The position numbers and the translations under genes were made by a program. 64,000 bases of DNA. Origin: Powellomyces hirtus (lineage: Eukaryota; Chytridiomycota; Chytridiomycetes; Spizellomycetales; Powellomycetaceae). Location of the stretch: assembly GCA_025526995.1 (NCBI GenBank), contig JAHLKG010000012.1, forward strand, positions 248,001-312,000, written 5' to 3'. Numbering within the stretch: position 1 is the stretch's first letter; every line of letters starts with the position of its first letter. Shown here piece after piece: positions 39,441 to 51,817 of the stretch. Under the pieces are notes generated by a model. It did not search any database and was not told where the DNA came from. It saw only the letters and a program-made list of their open reading frames with translations.

Positions 39441-41964
39441 ATGAGATTTGCCTTGTTCGGGTGCGCGAGCGCAGCTCTGACAGCGGCGGTCGTTGCGAAC
39501 TCTTGGCTTCAACGGGGCCAGTTCTTTACGGCATGCATCCACTTGACTCGGTCCAGCGCAAGCTTGATGGTATAATTATATGCATACAAAGCCTTATGGT
39601 ACAGATTTGACTGACCGCTGCTCTGCCTCAAATTCCAGGTTCTCTTGAACATGGGTCTGTATTTGACGGTGGTACTCGGCAAAGCGCTGCAACGTCTCTT
39701 CTTCGGCCAACTGAGGGCAATGGAAGTCGAGGTATGTGCCCGGTAGAAAGCCCATCTTAGCTAGAGGATGTCCCAGATGTGTTGATGCTTACACCATTCT
39801 TCGTTCGTCAAGCATTTGTACGAACGATCCTGGTTTGCCGTTACCGAAACCTGCCTCGCCATGACGATCTTCCGAGACCAGTTCGACATACGGTTCATCA
39901 TGTTGTTTGCATTCCTGCTGCTTGTGAAGATTTTCCACTGGATTATACAGGATCGAGTTGACTTTGTACGTAAGATCCAGAATCAATGGCAACACTCGAA
40001 CACAAGTGGCTACCAAATGACTGACGTATCTCTTTGCTGAAGATGGAACAATCGGCAAATCCATCCGTTGGTTGGCATGTCCGCATGCAGACTATCATGG
40101 GCATCATGTGTGTTGTGGATCTCGCGATGGTCCTTTACTCTGTGCAGTACACTACCACCAAAGGACCAAGCATGATGATTATATTTGGATTCGAGGTAGG
40201 CATCGTTAATAACACGCTACAGACAGCCTTGAGGCTAGAATCTGATCAAGATATTCTTATTTAAGTATACGATCCTGCTTTCGCTTGTTCTATCCACGTT
40301 CGTCAAATATCTCTTACACTCTTACGACTTGCGCCGTGATCGTCCATGGGAAGAGAAATCCATGTACATTTTCTACGTCGATCTCATGCACGGTGCGTTA
40401 ACGCTTCCTTGACGCATTAGTTATTCCAATTTCCGCCCACATATCCGCCCACATATGAACTAATGTCCACTTCCCCTTCTAGATCTCGAAAAATTGATCA
40501 CCTATTTCTGCTTTTTCGGGATTGTGGTTTACTATTACAGTCTTCCCCTTCACATTGTCCGTGACCTGTATATGACACTCCGGAGCTTTGTGGGCCGATG
40601 TCGTGACCTGGTTCAATATCGACGAGCAACGGCAAATATGAATGAGCGCTACCCGGACGCGACCGCTGACGACCTCGCGGCAACCGATCGCGTTTGCATC
40701 ATTTGCCGAGAAGACATGGAGATTGCTCCAGGAGCACCCAATGTGGAAGGAGCTGGAGCGGATGCCCCGGCCGCTGGCGCCGTGGCAGCCGCTCGCCCTG
40801 CTGGGCACCCAGATACTCCGAAGAAGCTACACTGTGGACACATCTTCCACTTCCACTGTTTGCGAAGCTGGCTTGAACGCCAGCAGAGCTGTCCTACCTG
40901 TCGACGATCTGTTTTGGAACAACGTGAGTACTAAAGTCTATGCGTCTTGTGCCGTTTCTCGGACAAGTTTGACACTGACCCTTACAAAAGCGGCTGCACA
41001 ACCGCCAGCCAACCAGGCTCGGGCCGCTGGTGCTGCACCGGGTGCCGTAAACGATTTCCAAGCCTTTTTGCGACAACATCATCAACAGTTTGCAGGTGGC
41101 ATGTTCCAAGGAGGGGCTGCTGGCCCTGCACCGGCACCAGCCGTACCCCGGGCAGGAGCAGCTGGACCTATTCCCCCAGCGCATGCCGTTCCGCTCCAAA
41201 CTGGCGCAATACCACCAGGTGCAGCAGTCAACAATCAGGTTTGTGCACACTGCAGATACGTCGGAGCAATCGTGAAACATCGGGCCTGACTCAATTCATC
41301 ATAGATGCACGCCGGGTCCATATCCAGTGCCATACCCCTTTCGCCGGTTGGAGGTGGCATGTTGTACCCCATCACTCTTACGCCACTCATACCCCTCAGC
41401 GGAGCCGATCTGACTCAGATACATTCGTCTGGTAGCAGCGTGACTCCTGCATTGGATCATCTCACGGATGATCAACTCCGAACCCTGGAAGGCCGTTCAC
41501 GCGATGCGATAACGAATCGCATAAGGGCACTACAGGACGTGCAAAACCAGATTACGGGATTGATCACCCAATTGGCTCAGATATCGCAGATGGTACCGGA
41601 ACACACAAGTACGATAACGCCAACACAATCGACTGAATCAGGAGGGTCTTCGTCAAGCAACAATGCTACGCATACCACTTCTCAGCAATCGTGTTCAGAG
41701 GTGCAGGGTTCAGCGTCATCGTCCTCGCCTTCGGGACCTATGGCCACTGGCGCCTCCACGCCTGGAAACGGCACAAGAACGGATGGAGGTAGTTCGAACA
41801 CAACGAGCATTGTCCTAGGATTTGAAGACAAAGAACCACTTGCCGGATCCGGAATTGCATCTGGCCCGGATCATACCCAACCAGCAAATGACGCTTCTGG
41901 CGTTGCAACCGCTTCAATCGCCACCGACGAGAAGGGCAAAGGTGCTGCCCACATATCCGAGTAG
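39441..41964 (+). CDS. HRD1: ERAD E3 ubiquitin ligase Hrd1 (synoviolin)
   Basis: Membrane RING ligase that forms the retrotranslocation channel and ubiquitinates misfolded ER proteins. Eight exons join in phase: 39441-39569, 39639-39731, 39813-39965, 40043-40195, 40266-40392, 40483-40923, 40991-41238, 41305-41964; about 667 aa. The N-terminus (MRFALFGCASAALTAAVVAN) opens a six-to-eight-helix membrane domain with the conserved LGKALQRLFFGQLRAMEVEH, LYERSWFAVTETCLAMTIFR and HWIIQDRVDF. The RING-H2 domain reads CIICREDME, then KKLHCGHIFHFHCLRSWLER and QQSCPTCR, complete for all zinc ligands. The C-terminal 330 residues are Ala/Pro/Gly- then Ser/Thr-rich and disordered, as in synoviolins. A short coiled segment (TNRIRALQDVQNQITGLI) precedes the tail. 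Confidence 0.95.
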
Positions 41965-45015: not shown

Positions 45016-46090
45016 AGTTCAGAATTGTCTTCCTTTCTTACAATTGGACAGGTATTGACAGAGTTATTTGATTTCGCGTTTTTTGACAATTTTTTGACCA
45101 TAAGAGACATCTCTGCAGGCATTTCGCTTCCCAGACCCGACACAGACTCAGCGCTGCTATACTCCATCGTAGAACATACCCGCGCAAGTTCAGAACTGTC
45201 GTCCTTTTGTCAATTGGACGGGTGTTGACAGAGGTATTCGATTTCGCGTTTTACGACAATTTTTTGACCATAAGAGACATCTCTGCATGCATGTCGCTTC
45301 CCAAACCTGACACGACCCAGCACTGCTATACCCCATTGTAGACCCAGCGCTGCTATACCCCATCGTAGAACAGATCCGTGCGAGTTCAGAACTGTCTTCC
45401 TTTCGTCAATTGGACAGGTATTGACAAAGTTATTTGATTTCGCATTTTTCAACAGTTTTTCGCACATCTGCTCATACCCCTTCCACCACTGCACAGATAC
45501 CAGCCTCGCAATGTTATCACATTGTACACCAGACCCGCGCGAGTCTAGAACTGTCTTCCTTTCATTATTTGGACCTTCTTTGAGGGAGTGGTGAGTAAAA
45601 ATGCGATTTCTGCGCATTTTCACACATCTGCTCATACCCCTTCTGCCTCCACACAGATACCACCCTCTCAATATCACCACATCGTACACCAGATCTGCGC
45701 GAGCCTAGAACTGTTTTCTTTTCATTATTTGGACTATTTTTGAGAGAGTGGTGAATAGAAATACAATGACAGGTCATATATGTAGACACACGCTGAAAAA
45801 CTACTTTCTACATATACACAGATACAGCCTTCTGTGACATACCAAATCGTACACCTGACCTGCGCGAGTCTAGAACTGTCTTCGTTTCATTATTTGGATC
45901 ATTTTGGAGAGAGTGGTGAATAGAAATGTGATTTCTGCACATTTTCAAACATCTGCTCATGCTCCTTCCACCCCTGGTCAGATACCAGCCTTGCACCCTC
46001 ACCACATTGTAGAACGTAAACAGGGGAGCATGGAACTGTCTTCTTTTTGTTCTTTGGACCATTTTTGAGAGAGCGGTAAGGAAAAATGCG
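45016..46090. repeat. Degenerate ~160-bp subterminal tandem repeats
   Basis: The phrase (a/g)agtt/ctcagaactgtcttcc or a close variant recurs at about 45016, 45187, 45383, 45542, 45701, 45866 and 46026, spacing 159-196 bp, and the sequences between are also related (cacatctgctcatacccctt; attatttggacc). It lies inside the Tc1-like transposon between its left end and the transposase. No protein is encoded. Confidence 0.8.
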
Positions 46091-46216
46091 TTGAACTGTT
46101 GGTGCGCATAAACAAATTGTCTATCCTATTGTCTAATATCTAGTGGATCCCTCCTCTGCATCTATGATAGCCTGCATATGGTAAGGCATGCTCTCTATGA
46201 GCTTGTTTAGAAACTC

Positions 46217-46444: not shown

Positions 46445-46701
46445 TGTTGTGCGTAGGTCCGGTTGAGATGTAGTGCAACAGAGGAAAGCTAGCTCGACAC
46501 TCTCAATGACAATGGGATGATTGTGTTGTTGTTAAGTGTAAACGATGGGTGAAAGAGATCTACACTACAAAGAAGAAAGGTGGCTGTGCAGGCTATCTAA
46601 GCATTCGCGGTCAGATGAAGTACCATTGCGCAGCGGGGGTCACGTGGAGTCTTGGAGCGCTGTCGATTTGACAGGTTTATCTCAAAAGTCCAATCTCAAC
46701 A
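46445..46701 (-). repeat. Copia 3' LTR (left)
   Basis: Identical to the right LTR except for ttgagatgt/ttgaggtgt and aatctcaaca/aatcttaaca. It begins TGTTG and ends CAACA on the plus strand. Its right edge is only 24 bp from the start codon of the antisense RING gene, so it could supply that gene's promoter. Confidence 0.95.
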
Positions 46702-46714
46702 CTCCCCCAACTTT
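46702..46714 (-). other. Copia polypurine tract
   Basis: On the element strand AAAGTTGGGGGAG abuts the 3' LTR, the position and base composition of a plus-strand primer site. Confidence 0.6.
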
Positions 46715-46725
46715 GGAGACCAAAC

Positions 46726-47166
46726 ATGCCACAAAACGGTCGAGCTCCGAAGTGTCCCGTTTGTCTTTTTCAAGATGCCGAATTCTGTGGGGACTGCGGG
46801 CACCTGCTGTGCTTCCGGTGTTTGAAGTACATTTGGGTGACACCTGACGACGCCGCACGCAGATGTGTTATCTGCAGGTGAGGAAGGAGCCCCGTTGTGC
46901 TGGTTTCAGGGTACTGATATCTCGCATTGCACAGAAAAGAGTGGATTAACCTCTTTGAAGGGGAAGTAACGAGAAGGCGGTGTGACAGGTGTTACAAAAG
47001 AAAAGACTGTCGGACGCCGCACGCCTGTGGAGAAAGAAACCCCTGTTTTCTGTGTGAGAGCTGTTCACGGGGTCTGGTGCATCGAAGTGGAGAGATACGT
47101 TGCCCGAAATGCAACAAGTCGGACCGTCGATTGAGATGGTGGTTGCGGCGGGTGTATTTCAACTAG
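46726..47166 (+). CDS. RING-finger gene carried antisense inside the copia element
   Basis: Two exons, 46726-46877 and 46935-47166, join in phase across a 57-bp GT-AG intron (gtgagg ... tgcacag) and encode an intact 127-aa protein. The N-terminal half is a C3HC4 RING: CPVC, then CGDCGHLLCFRCL, then CVIC, which suggests an E3 ubiquitin ligase activity. The second half has a further Cys/His cluster (CDRCYKRKDC, HACGERNPCFLCESC, RCPKCNKSDRR) and a basic Trp-rich tail (WWLRRVYFN). It lies between the end of pol (stop at 47185) and the 3' LTR, opposite to the element. Because it is antisense, its intron is not spliced from the genomic RNA of the element and can be kept through transposition. Its intact frame contrasts with the broken gag-pol. 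I do not recognise a named family beyond the RING. Confidence 0.82.
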
Positions 47167-47184
47167 ACTTATAACGGGTGTATA

Positions 47185-50100
47185 TCAATGAGATTTGGCG
47201 TAATCTGATTTCGTTCGGAGTCCAGTTCGGTGTCGCAGATCATCAAGTAATGGGCGAGGTAGCAGTTTCGTCAGGGCGTCAGCCAGCATGAGCTTGGACT
47301 CAATGTACTGTAGGTGAATGCGCTCGTTACCGACGAGGTCTCGCAGGAAGTGATAACGGACATCAATGTGTTTGGTTCGTTGGTGATGCGTCGGATTGGC
47401 GGCAAGCTTGATAGCAGCCTGATTGTCCTTATGGATGAGAACTGCTGTCTGCTCCGTTGCTGACAGTTCGGATAGGAGACCCTGGATCCAGAGTGCTTCC
47501 TTTGCACATTCCGCGAGTGCAATGTATTCTGCTTCTGCTGTGGATAGCGCCGTTGATTTTTGACGTTGAGATTTCCATGAAATAGCAGCTCCGTTGAGCA
47601 TGAATACATAGCCGGAGGTTGAGCGACGCGTGTCCGTACAGCGTGCGTAGTCGGCATCCGAATATCCGACAATATCTCCCCCATCTTGGAAGACAAGAGA
47701 GAGATCACTGGTTGTGTTTGCGTATGCGCAAACTTTCTTTGCGGCCGTCATGTGTGTGGCCGTCAGTGCTGCCAGAAACTGAGATAAACGGGAAACTGAG
47801 TAGGCCAGGTCAGGGCAAGTCCCTAACATCAGATACATTAGTGTTCCAATGATCGACTGATATTCCTTGATTCCTGATGCGTCGAGGGTGTCGGCTCCAT
47901 CGTGCGCGTTTAGATGTAAGGTCGGGTCCATCGGGATGTGATGCGGCCGCATGCCGTTAAGGTTAAACTTGTCGATCATGTCTTTGATGTACTTCTGTTG
48001 GCCAATGGTAATGCATCGCTTTGGCCGGTCGCGCGTAATCTGAAGACCGAGAAGGAAAGAGATCTCCCCCATGTCCTCCATCTTGAAGCGTTCGGCAAGC
48101 GCGGATTTGAGAGCAAGCAGGTCATCGAGGTTTGATGCGAAAATCGTGAGATCATCCACGTAGACGGCAACAATCAGGATCCTTGTGTTGTCAGTCCGCT
48201 TAAGGTAGAGCACGGTGCCGAGTTCTGATACTGAGAACCCGAGCTGTTAAAGAAAGGAGTCGAGAACCTTGTTCCATAGGCGCGGCGATTGTTTAAGGCC
48301 GTAAAGGGAACGGCGTAGTTTGAAGACGTCGTCAGCGACGCCGGCTGGGAGCCGCATCCAGATTTCTACGTTGAGATCTCCGTTGAGAAATGCGGTGACG
48401 ACATCCATCTGATGGACGTGAAGGTTGAGCTTAGCGGCAAGCGCGAGTAGCGCCCGCAAGGTGTTAAACTTGACGACGGGCGCATATGTTTCGTTGAAGT
48501 CAATGCCTTCACGCTGCGTGAAGCCTCGGGCAACGAGGCGGGCTTTGAACTTCTTGATGGAACCAGCGGCGTTGCGTTTGACTTTGAAGACCCATTTGGA
48601 ATCAACAAGGTGAGTGCCAGACGGTGTTTGCGTGGTGTCCGTGTCCCACGTCTTGTTAGTGCGGTGAGATGAGAGTTCAGCGTCGATCGCTTGTTTCCAC
48701 TCTTTCGCATACGGCGAGTTGATTGCCGCCTGGTAAGTGGCGGGCTTGTCAATGTCAGTGCTGCATGCGGCATGCAGTTCGGCGATTACGGGTGTGCCGT
48801 CATCTTCGATTCCGGTGAATCGCGTCAGGGCCTCTGAATCCTTGACGTTGTCGAGGGGTTCCCATGTTGGTTCGTCGTAGCCAAGCCACTTGACCAGGAA
48901 TTCCTCTCCCCCTTCGCCGTTGCGAGAGAGTAAGATGCGCTCAACCACATATTCAGGAGTGGTGTCGCTCTGAGCGACAGGGCTGACGTAATCAGCCTCG
49001 TTAATTGTGACGTCTCGTGCATCGATGATCGAATCCGTCGATGCATCGTAAAGGCGATAGTTGCCTTGTTTAGTGGGGTGATATCCCACTAGTCGGAACG
49101 GTCCGACAGCGCGAGCTCCGAGCTTGCGGTGTGTGCGACGGCGCACAGGTTGATGCATATAGGGCATGCTCCAGATGGTGCGGAGGTTCGATACATCGGC
49201 AGGGGTCCCAAACCAATGTTGGTATGGGGTCTCTCCGTTGAGAGACGTTGATGGCATCCGTTGACGCAGGTAGTTGACGGCCATAGCGAGTTCTCCCCAA
49301 AGTTTGAAAGGAGCGCGGCTGTCATGAAGAATCGCTCGGACCTGGTCCATGAGCGTACGGTTGAACCGTTCAGCAATGCCATTTTGCTGAGAGGAGTACG
49401 GGTGAGTAGGGTTTAACGTGATCCCATCGGCGAGCAGCTCAGCCTGCAGGGGATAGTACTCGCCACCGTTATCGCAGCGCAGCTCCTTGATCTTGGAGTC
49501 AAGATGACATTCCGCGTGTGCGTGATAGTTTTGCCAATAATTGATGGTTTGATCTTTGGTCTTGAGGAGGTAGATGATGGAATACCGTGTGTATTTGTCA
49601 ATGAACATGAGGATGTAGCGGGCACCGCAGAGAGAGAGAAGGCTGGGGCCCATGTCGAGGATGTCCAAATGTATGCAATCAAGAGGTTTGGTTGCAGGTT
49701 GAGGGTTTTGCCCATCAAAGCGCAGCCTGGTAGATTTATCAAGAGAGCAGCCGGAGCACAACACGTGCTCCAGTTTGACGTTGTTTGGCAGATCAAGAGA
49801 ATAGATCAGATTTGCAGCTTGAAGCGCTTGTTGTCCGATGTGCCCAAAGCGTTGATGCCATAGTTTATAGACATTGCGGTCCTTTGTTTTGCAGCTTCGG
49901 TTGCAAAAGCAGCGGCGGTGGTTTCAACATAACCATCGATAAATGGCAGGTTTCCGTTGTGGCGGAGCGGTAGGATAACGCGGCTGTTCTTTAAGATGGA
50001 GGAACCGTTAGTTGAGAACGTGATTTCGTAACCGTCCCAGTTCAGTGGCGATGTGGAAACCAAGTTGCGGCTCGCTTCAGGTACGTAGAGCACGTCGACG

Positions 50101-51479
50101 CAGACAACGGCTTCGTCCGTGTCGTTATTGCTGATGGTGAGTGTGCCTGCTTTGTGAGCGGTAAGGTTTTCGCCGTTTGCGACGCTGATTTGGACTGCCG
50201 GGATGGGTCGCAGGTCAGTAAGGAGAATAGCGTCCTTGATAATGTGGTGCGTTGCGCAAGAATCAAGGGCAATTGAATGCGAGGACCTGCGGTTAGTTGC
50301 CAAAACAAGGTTTGCTTCGGCAGCAGGTTCTTGCTGATGTTGTTTAAGGAGCTTGCGCGCGTCCTTCATTTTCGGGCAGTCCTTCATCCAATGACCGGTT
50401 TGTTTGCAGAGGAGGCAGGGAGATCCTGGAACTGAGCGGCGGCGTTGTTTTTTCCACGATTTTCGGGGCGCGTGTTCATTGGTGTTGGCGTCCGAATTGC
50501 CATGCATCACATGGGCTTCAATGTGAGACTCGGTTTTGGGCACACGAGCGCCCCGTTCTGAGGTAAGCTGTTCCTGTCGGATTGCAGCTTCCTGCATGGC
50601 GTCCAGATCCAAGAGATCCTTTGAGATGATGGCTGAGTAGATAGGACGCTTGAGTCCCTTGAGATAGCGATGCTCGATTTCTCCTTTGTTCATGTCGGGA
50701 ATCTGCATGACGAGTTTGTTGAACGCATTGTTGTATGCAATAACCGACGTGGTCTGTGAAAGATCATCCAGTTTATCACGGATCATCGAGCTGAACGCTG
50801 GTGGTGTAAACCTCAGGCATAGTGTTGTTTTGAGAAGGTTCCACATTTGAGGAGCGGTCCCTTGGCTTTTCTGGGTCCTCCACCAGATGTGAGCGGTAGA
50901 TGTGAGTTTGCTTACCGCCATTTTTGCTTCGAGAAGTGGCGGAAGGTATGCAACCTCGAAAAAATCGTCCAGTTTTGCAATGAATTCGAGAAGTAATTGC
51001 GGGCTACTCATATCGCCATCGAAGTTGGGAACTTGTTTAAGGAGCTCCTTTGCGACGGAATTCATTGAGGACAACGTGGGAGAAGAATTCTCTGATGATC
51101 GAGAGTGTGGGCGGTCCTCCGGGAAGACATGAGGGTTTACAGCGGCGGCCGTCTGCATTTGCATTTGTGCGAAGGTAGAAATCATCTTTTCCATCATCTC
51201 TCGTTGGGATTCAGCCGCAAGGTGCTGAGACTCCCTTTGTGACTCGGCGGCGAGTCGCTGCGATTCCAGCAGCATGCGTTCCTGCATTTCGGCGATAATG
51301 TGTTGGGATTCCAACAGCGCCTTCTCCAAATACTCCTTGGTGACGATCTTGTCGTCAGGTCAAGCGGCTCGACTCTTGTCGTCCTCACTGTGAGGACCCT
51401 CATCTGCAGAATCCTGCGTCGGCGCAGGGGCAGTGTTTGTTCCGGACCTGGTCCGAATGGGGCTACGGGACAATGGCAT
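47185..51479 (-). pseudogene. Copia gag-pol polyprotein, broken by two stops and a frameshift
   Basis: Reading from the ATG at 51479: coiled Gln/Glu-rich gag (ESQRLAAESQRE repeats), zinc knuckle CLLCKQTGHWMKDC, protease with DSCATHHI, pre-integrase block LWHQRFGHIGQQAL, integrase zinc site, D,D,E residues in HLDILDMGP, RCDNGGEY and NGIAERFNRT, a chromodomain, reverse transcriptase (ALLALAAKLNLHVHQMDVV; YVDDLTIFAS) and RNase H with the copia KHIDVRYHFLRD block. Lesions: TGA at 51360-51362 near the start, a frameshift near 49888 just before the pre-integrase block, and TAA at 48247-48249 within reverse transcriptase. The frameshift could be programmed, but copia elements usually use one frame. 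Confidence 0.92.
48811..48954 (-). other. Chromodomain within copia pol
   Basis: In the same open frame as integrase and reverse transcriptase stands EYVVERILLSRNGEGGEEFL followed by VKWLGYDEPTWEPLDNV. It has the chromodomain core: Y-x-V-E-x-I-L, F/Y-L-V-K-W-x-G-Y and T-W-E-P, with aromatic cage positions Tyr, Trp and Trp kept. It sits about 110 residues after the integrase Glu and before the reverse transcriptase opening (WKQAIDAEL). Confidence 0.9.
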
Positions 51480-51546
51480 GATTGAGTATTGAACAACATG
51501 AAGAAGGATGCAGGATGCTTGTCGTTTTAAGCGTTGAGCGGGCTGA

Positions 51547-51560
51547 CAGGGCTCATAACC
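51547..51560 (-). other. Copia primer-binding site for a half initiator tRNA-Met
   Basis: Directly inside the 5' LTR the element strand reads GGTTATGAGCCCTG. This is the exact complement of CAGGGCTCATAACC, the anticodon stem-loop of eukaryotic initiator tRNA-Met, and not of a tRNA 3' end. Drosophila copia and yeast Ty5 prime from such a cleaved half tRNA. Confidence 0.8.
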
Positions 51561-51817
51561 TGTTGTGCGTAGGTCCGGTTGAGGTGTAGTGCAACAGAGG
51601 AAAGCTAGCTCGACACTCTCAATGACAATGGGATGATTGTGTTGTTGTTAAGTGTAAACGATGGGTGAAAGAGATCTACACTACAAAGAAGAAAGGTGGC
51701 TGTGCAGGCTATCTAAGCATTCGCGGTCAGATGAAGTACCATTGCGCAGCGGGGGTCACGTGGAGTCTTGGAGCGCTGTCGATTTGACAGGTTTATCTCA
51801 AAAGTCCAATCTTAACA
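51561..51817 (-). repeat. Copia 5' LTR (right)
   Basis: 257 bp, two differences from the left LTR, followed by the GAAAA target duplication at 51818-51822. Transcription of the element on the minus strand starts in this copy. Confidence 0.95.

What the first reader, a model, noticed from the sequence alone, without database searches (positions are those of the whole stretch)
46726..47166. Intact, intron-containing RING gene carried antisense inside a Ty1/copia element
Seen directly: a two-exon frame with good splice sites and a complete C3HC4 RING plus a second Cys cluster sits between pol and the 3' LTR of a copia element, on the opposite strand. Sense gag-pol is broken three times while this gene is whole. 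Inference: selection or recent capture, with the intron kept because the element RNA is its antisense. A RING protein could target host silencing factors, element proteins or stability of the integrase.
Basis: partly seen in the sequence, partly recalled or inferred. Interest (0 to 1): 0.88.

Follow-up and report, generated by a model that had tools for sequence, protein, structure and literature searches.

The report
Antisense tandem-RING gene in copia retrotransposon
A fungal jumping gene carries, on its opposite strand, a small spliced gene for a probable ubiquitin-ligase protein that has been kept working through many rounds of copying, which suggests that the element uses it to manage its host or itself.

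Summary
A two-exon gene (46726-46877, 57-nt intron, 46935-47166) lies antisense between pol and the 3' LTR of a Ty1/copia element. It is not a one-off: of 37 listed genome places with this family's pol, 35 carry it, and the other two lack the pol end. Splice sites and intron are kept in 35 of 35 full-length copies; 18 of 35 are wholly intact. No stop or frameshift is seen in 8 of 8 copies with near-identical LTRs, against 3 of 10 older ones. Against a mutation-relocating null, stops are 4 (26.4 expected) and zinc-ligand codon changes 4 (49.5 expected). So the protein is selected, though outside the ligands it changes fast. It is a C3HC4 RING plus a second, probable C4C4 RING. A relative with the same intron position lies beside a dynein light chain gene, but synonymous divergence is saturated: recent capture is not supported. 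Best reading: an element accessory gene, probably a ubiquitin ligase. Antisense extra genes are a known kind, mostly in Ty3/gypsy elements; a spliced RING gene in Ty1/copia is a new variant. Transcription, activity and target are untested.

The parts
46445..46701 (-). 3' LTR of the element (257 nt); likely place of the antisense promoter (inferred)
   Evidence: 99.2% identical to the other LTR
46702..46725 (+). 24-nt leader between LTR and start codon; its other strand holds the polypurine tract
   Evidence: sequence; largely conserved among copies
46726..46877 (+). exon 1 of the antisense gene: C3HC4 RING
46878..46934 (+). 57-nt intron, GT..AG, phase 2
   Evidence: GT and AG in 35 of 35 copies
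46935..47166 (+). exon 2: second cysteine cluster (probable C4C4 RING) and basic C-terminus, stop at 47164-47166
47185..48213 (-). sense pol, end of reverse transcriptase and RNase H part
   Evidence: RVT_2 3.1e-17; RNase H by position, not by a Pfam match
48247..49764 (-). sense pol: integrase, chromodomain, start of reverse transcriptase
49806..51329 (-). gag, zinc knuckle and Pol_BBD frame
51561..51817 (-). 5' LTR

Best explanation
A resident accessory gene of a chytrid Ty1/copia family. It is transcribed antisense from the 3' LTR or its edge, spliced once, and makes a 15-kDa basic tandem-RING protein. Shown: architecture, presence in the listed copies that have the pol end, conserved splice sites, purifying selection on the zinc ligands, integrity in young copies and decay in old ones. 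Inferred: antisense transcription, ubiquitin ligase activity, and the target. Most likely it acts on a host protein that restrains the element, because the zinc scaffold is frozen while the rest changes 2 to 3.5 times faster, relative to synonymous sites, than the end of pol between subfamilies. The confidence is for a selected, protein-coding element gene of RING type; for a host-directed target alone I would say 0.35 to 0.4.
For: 35 of 37 listed pol places carry the gene and the other two lack the pol end. Splice sites 35 of 35; 18 of 35 with start, frame, splice sites and no stop. Zinc-ligand codons change 0.21 and 0.16 times at positions 1 and 2 against 1.52 and 1.17 at other codons, 0 of 10000 label shuffles as low. 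Ten pairs: 4 stops against 26.4 (null minimum 12), 4 ligand codon changes against 49.5 (minimum 33), 326 nonsynonymous codons against 412.7 (minimum 385). No stop or frameshift in 8 of 8 copies with LTR pairs of 98.4% or more, 3 of 10 below. Frame-changing exon indels about 0.54 per kb (7 events, my count) against 0.45, 0.47, 0.08 and 0.49 in pol C-part, integrase, RT and gag, and 4.87 in the LTR. RING by profile.
Against: pN/pS is high (0.55-0.68) between subfamilies, and 0.44 in the youngest bin. The intron core differs as little (0.139) as first and second codon positions (0.154, 0.143), with third positions at 0.183. The - strand frame that shares third positions has the same pN/pS (0.607 against 0.614), though 0 of 36 rows are open in it. 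17 of 35 copies are broken. The second RING has only weak profile support (best Pfam E 0.025 in 3 of 10 members; RBBP6 at 0.21) and a model of 73.4 pLDDT. No transcript, no activity and no relative outside this genome were seen.
Confidence: 0.75

Rival explanations
1. Same gene and protein, but it acts on the element itself: it ubiquitinates Gag, integrase or reverse transcriptase and so times or limits transposition.
For: Selected at the level of transposing copies; the review read names regulation of retrotransposition as the likely role of antisense genes (PMC7264820, parts 1 and 2 of 3).
Against: A partner inside the element should slow the protein as it slows pol, but it changes faster than pol between subfamilies. 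Relaxed constraint would look alike.
Confidence: 0.3
2. The antisense RNA is what matters (double-stranded RNA, self-silencing), and the reading frame is incidental.
For: The transcript would be complementary to the sense RNA of the element; such a role is discussed in PMC7264820.
Against: Protein-level signals: ligand codons, stops, splice sites; indels in exons are rare and in the LTR common.
Confidence: 0.07
3. Passive cargo: a host gene taken up by chance and carried along.
For: A chromosomal relative with the same intron position and phase exists (L049); 17 of 35 copies are broken.
Against: Decay follows age of insertion, ligands are frozen, and synonymous sites against L049 are saturated, so it has lasted long.
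Confidence: 0.08
4. About origin, independent of function: the chromosomal gene beside the dynein light chain descends from the element (domestication) rather than being the source.
For: No relative was found in the protein collection, so no older host family is visible; L048 and L051 lie among transposon remains.
Against: No LTR or pol match at L049 or L050; L050 is a 93% duplicate of that locus with the start of the dynein gene.
Confidence: 0.35

Closest known systems
Antisense additional ORFs between pol and 3' LTR (aORF-3R): maize Grande gene23, rice RIRE2, Silene Retand, Phaseolus PvRetro13, Botrytis Boty (PMC7264820, parts 1 and 2 of 3 read; PMC11963269, passages; the title of the Boty brtn paper seen only in a reference list)
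   Same: Same place, same orientation, present in most copies of a family, constrained like other element genes.
   Different: Ty1/copia instead of Ty3/gypsy (Retand is called Gypsy in PMC11963269; for the others recalled); an intron; a RING; a chromosomal relative. The review says similar sequences outside elements are lacking and names only an SMC domain and a transposase-28 domain among known similarities.
HTLV antisense gene driven from the 3' LTR (named in PMC7264820; that HBZ is spliced is recalled)
   Same: Antisense gene near the 3' LTR, an accessory role, likely an LTR promoter.
   Different: Unrelated element and protein; works-like comparison only, transcription not shown here.
RING-type ubiquitin ligases, nearest by profile RNF4, COP1, TRIM proteins
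   Same: C3HC4 ligands and spacing; Arg directly after the last ligand in 35 of 35 copies, the linchpin place by recall.
   Different: Only 127 aa in two zinc modules, no substrate-binding domain recognised; L049 has Gln at that place; activity unknown.

Membership tests
Ty1/copia LTR retrotransposon | LTR pair with target duplication | tested here: met
   257-nt LTRs, GAAAA both sides
Ty1/copia LTR retrotransposon | integrase ahead of an RVT_2 reverse transcriptase | tested here: met
Antisense additional gene (aORF-3R) | antisense, between pol and 3' LTR | tested here: met
Antisense additional gene (aORF-3R) | in all or most copies of the family | tested here: met
Antisense additional gene (aORF-3R) | constraint similar to other element genes | tested here: met
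   but pN/pS between subfamilies is higher than in pol
Antisense additional gene (aORF-3R) | antisense transcript | not testable with these tools
   no RNA data at hand
RING-type ubiquitin ligase | C3HC4 zinc ligands in RING spacing | tested here: met
RING-type ubiquitin ligase | second module folds as a RING | tested here: inconclusive
   fold search never ran
RING-type ubiquitin ligase | E2 binding and ubiquitin transfer | not testable with these tools
   needs protein assays
Recently captured host gene | close similarity to a host gene | tested here: not met
   pS about 0.8 against L049; no closer non-element match

The most novel reading that the evidence does not exclude
An LTR retrotransposon that encodes its own ubiquitin ligase: a spliced antisense tandem-RING gene, driven by the 3' LTR, that removes a host silencing or restriction factor and is in an arms race with it, a fungal counterpart of retroviral accessory genes.
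Probability: 0.3. Interest if true: 0.9.

Novelty: new variant of a known kind. Interest (0 to 1): 0.68.

Why it matters
Antisense genes between pol and the 3' LTR recur, but their origin and function are open in the review read (PMC7264820). This one has a recognisable domain with a testable activity, a chromosomal relative with the same intron position, dozens of copies of different ages, and clear protein-level selection. That makes the question of what such genes do directly testable, and it extends the kind to a Ty1/copia family of a chytrid fungus.

Tried and rejected
Recent capture: not supported. Chance frame: rejected. Constraint borrowed from pol: rejected, the coding regions do not overlap. 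A further copia family with the gene (L051): a pol piece lies in convergent orientation about 1 kb away, but no LTR pair was found in the stretches fetched, so inconclusive. A larger copia family (80 rows at about 43% identity): no RING match near those places, and the one copy looked at has about 302-nt repeats after pol instead. L056: a fragment of exon 2 only. Relatives elsewhere: none at E <= 1 for the single sequence (3 candidates) or the 6-sequence profile (1128 candidates), though the same collection holds this family's pol. Viral contigs: none. An Stc1 match near L048 (0.018) taken as chance. Fold comparison of the exon 2 model and a model of exon 1 never ran.

Papers: ten searches (the last found none). 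In the titles and abstract starts listed I saw no RING gene antisense in a copia element; this speaks for those searches in open-licence papers only.

Counting notes: one search lists 41 rows; six partial rows (C39, C23, C34, C4:1412358, two of C33) were left out of the copy alignment. The alignment holds 36 rows because one locus is in twice (L034_870 and L047_3170, identical); I give n = 35 where recounted and 36 rows otherwise. The ten pairs were picked by me across subfamilies, share deep branches, and count stops only in the second member and absent from the first. In one search only 18 of 36 rows had both LTRs; two of the young ones share an LTR, and one old pair covers 170 nt. One search's tally calls L035 and L047_808 intact; one search does not (an exon insertion, a lost start). 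Pol places and gene places were matched by eye.

Full report
What is there. The window copy is a Ty1/copia element on the minus strand, 46445-51817, with 257-nt LTRs that differ at 2 sites and GAAAA on both sides. Its sense frames give gag with a zinc knuckle, Pol_BBD, integrase, a chromodomain and RVT_2 reverse transcriptase; in this copy they lie in three separate frames. Between the end of pol (47185) and the 3' LTR (46701) lies one gene on the other strand: exon 46726-46877, intron 46878-46934, exon 46935-47166. The intron is phase 2 and sits directly behind the last RING cysteine.

Where it occurs. A DNA search of the own genome (29.26 Mb, 60 contigs) lists 41 rows for the gene. A protein search with the end of pol scored 118 of 630 candidates; 38 rows have 70% identity or more, which are 37 places. 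Of these, 35 have the gene just beyond the pol end in antisense, matched by eye. The other two lack the pol end: at C10:578770 the match to pol stops 253 nt short, and at C32:121623 a neighbouring copy's LTR begins where pol is cut. So in the places listed the gene is a fixed part of the family. The nearest named relative of the integrase-RT piece is a Powellomyces hirtus protein (95% identity over 73% of the query; four unnamed proteins score higher), so I infer a chytrid host of or near that genus.

Is it a gene? Thirty-five distinct full-length copies were aligned. GT and AG are present in 35 of 35 and no copy has lost the intron. Eighteen of 35 have start, frame, splice sites and no stop; 23 have no stop; 6 have a frameshift; 33 have a start codon. 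The gene's frame has 0.47 stops per row, the five other frames 1.75 to 5.31, and in each of those 0 of 36 rows are open. Frame-changing indels in exons are about 0.54 per kb (7 events, counted), like pol C-part (0.45), integrase (0.47) and gag (0.49), above RT (0.08) and a ninth of the LTR (4.87). Parsimony counts give zinc-ligand codons 0.21 and 0.16 changes at first and second positions against 1.52 and 1.17 elsewhere; 0 of 10000 label shuffles were as low. In ten pairs, relocating the observed differences to sites of the same base and CpG class gives 26.4 stops where 4 are seen, 49.5 ligand codon changes where 4 are seen, and 412.7 nonsynonymous codons where 326 are seen. Ligands are changed in 4 copies, all of which are also otherwise decayed. 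Age fits: 8 of 8 copies with LTR pairs at least 98.4% identical have no stop or frameshift, 3 of 10 older ones. I conclude that the protein is selected while copies transpose and decays after insertion.

Results that cut the other way. pN/pS of the gene is 0.44 in the youngest bin and 0.32 in the next, near pol C-part at 0.47 and 0.40; between subfamilies it is 0.55, 0.62 and 0.68 while pol C-part falls to 0.28, 0.24 and 0.19. The intron core differs as little (0.139) as first and second codon positions (0.154, 0.143), with third positions at 0.183. The minus-strand frame that shares its third positions with the gene has the same pN/pS (0.607 against 0.614), a mirror effect by my reading. With ligands frozen, the pattern means a conserved scaffold with fast-changing other residues. 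That fits an arms race; relaxed constraint would look alike. Subfamilies are mosaic: L034 and L036 have pol about 94% like the window but gene and LTR only 85-88%.

What protein. The 127-aa product (15 kDa, pI 9.2) has a C3HC4 RING, matched by a 6-sequence profile to RNF4 at 1e-5 and more weakly to COP1 and TRIM RINGs. The second cluster has eight cysteines in RING spacing, shared with the chromosomal relatives. Profile support for it is weak and the AlphaFold model of exon 2 has mean pLDDT 73.4 and pTM 0.57; the fold search stayed unavailable. I call it a probable C4C4 RING. Ligase activity is inferred.

Relatives outside the family. Five further places hold relatives (L048 to L052, 31-67% identity by exon) and C11 a fragment. 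L049 (C1:350899-351599) has an open two-exon gene with the same intron position and phase and AATAAA behind it. It lies head-to-head with a dynein light chain gene (PF01221, 7.5e-38). L050 duplicates that locus at 93% with the start of the dynein gene, and has a stop. No LTR or pol match was found at either. Synonymous sites between L049 and the element gene are saturated. So the two share ancestry, the event is old, and its direction is open.

Mechanism. The gene starts 24 nt from the LTR, so its promoter probably lies in the LTR or its edge; the leader is largely conserved, and the start codon is lost in two decayed copies. The genomic RNA of the element is antisense to the gene, so the intron survives reverse transcription, as seen. 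I infer that the spliced product works as a small RING ligase during the element's cycle, most likely on a host factor, nearly as likely on element proteins. Neither transcription nor activity was tested.

Comparison. Antisense additional genes between pol and the 3' LTR are a known kind, described for plant families and for Boty of Botrytis (PMC7264820, parts 1 and 2 of 3 read; PMC11963269, passages). The review says that most have unknown origin, that no clear similarities to other proteins are described apart from domains such as SMC and transposase 28, and that similar sequences outside elements are lacking. The present case meets the position, orientation, copy-wide presence and constraint of that kind. 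It differs in superfamily, in being spliced, in its RING, and in having a chromosomal relative. I file it as a new variant of a known kind.

Noticed in passing
48817-48951 (-): A chromodomain (PF00385, 6.2e-10) behind the integrase of a Ty1/copia element, a place where it is usual for Ty3/gypsy; several metagenome relatives carry it too. The gag also matches Ty3-type models.
   Followed up: partly
L049 1536-1962 (-) and 2189-3001 (+): An open two-exon tandem-RING gene head-to-head with a dynein light chain gene; a duplicated, broken copy of the locus at L050.
   Followed up: partly
L053 1-1601: The larger copia family (about 43% identical pol) has about 302-nt repeats after pol, where the window's family has the RING gene.
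   Followed up: no
46580-46599: A block of the LTR that is nearly invariant among 12 divergent copies (0.03 differences per site against 0.11-0.30 in the other full blocks).
   Followed up: no
L011 and L012 (C3:1778681-1789169): Two copies in tandem that share one LTR.
   Followed up: no
40494-40934 (+): A frame with a RING-like C-terminus, a probable host gene unrelated to the finding (by eye).
   Followed up: no
45041-46094: Several direct repeats of 100-255 nt next to the element insertion.
   Followed up: no
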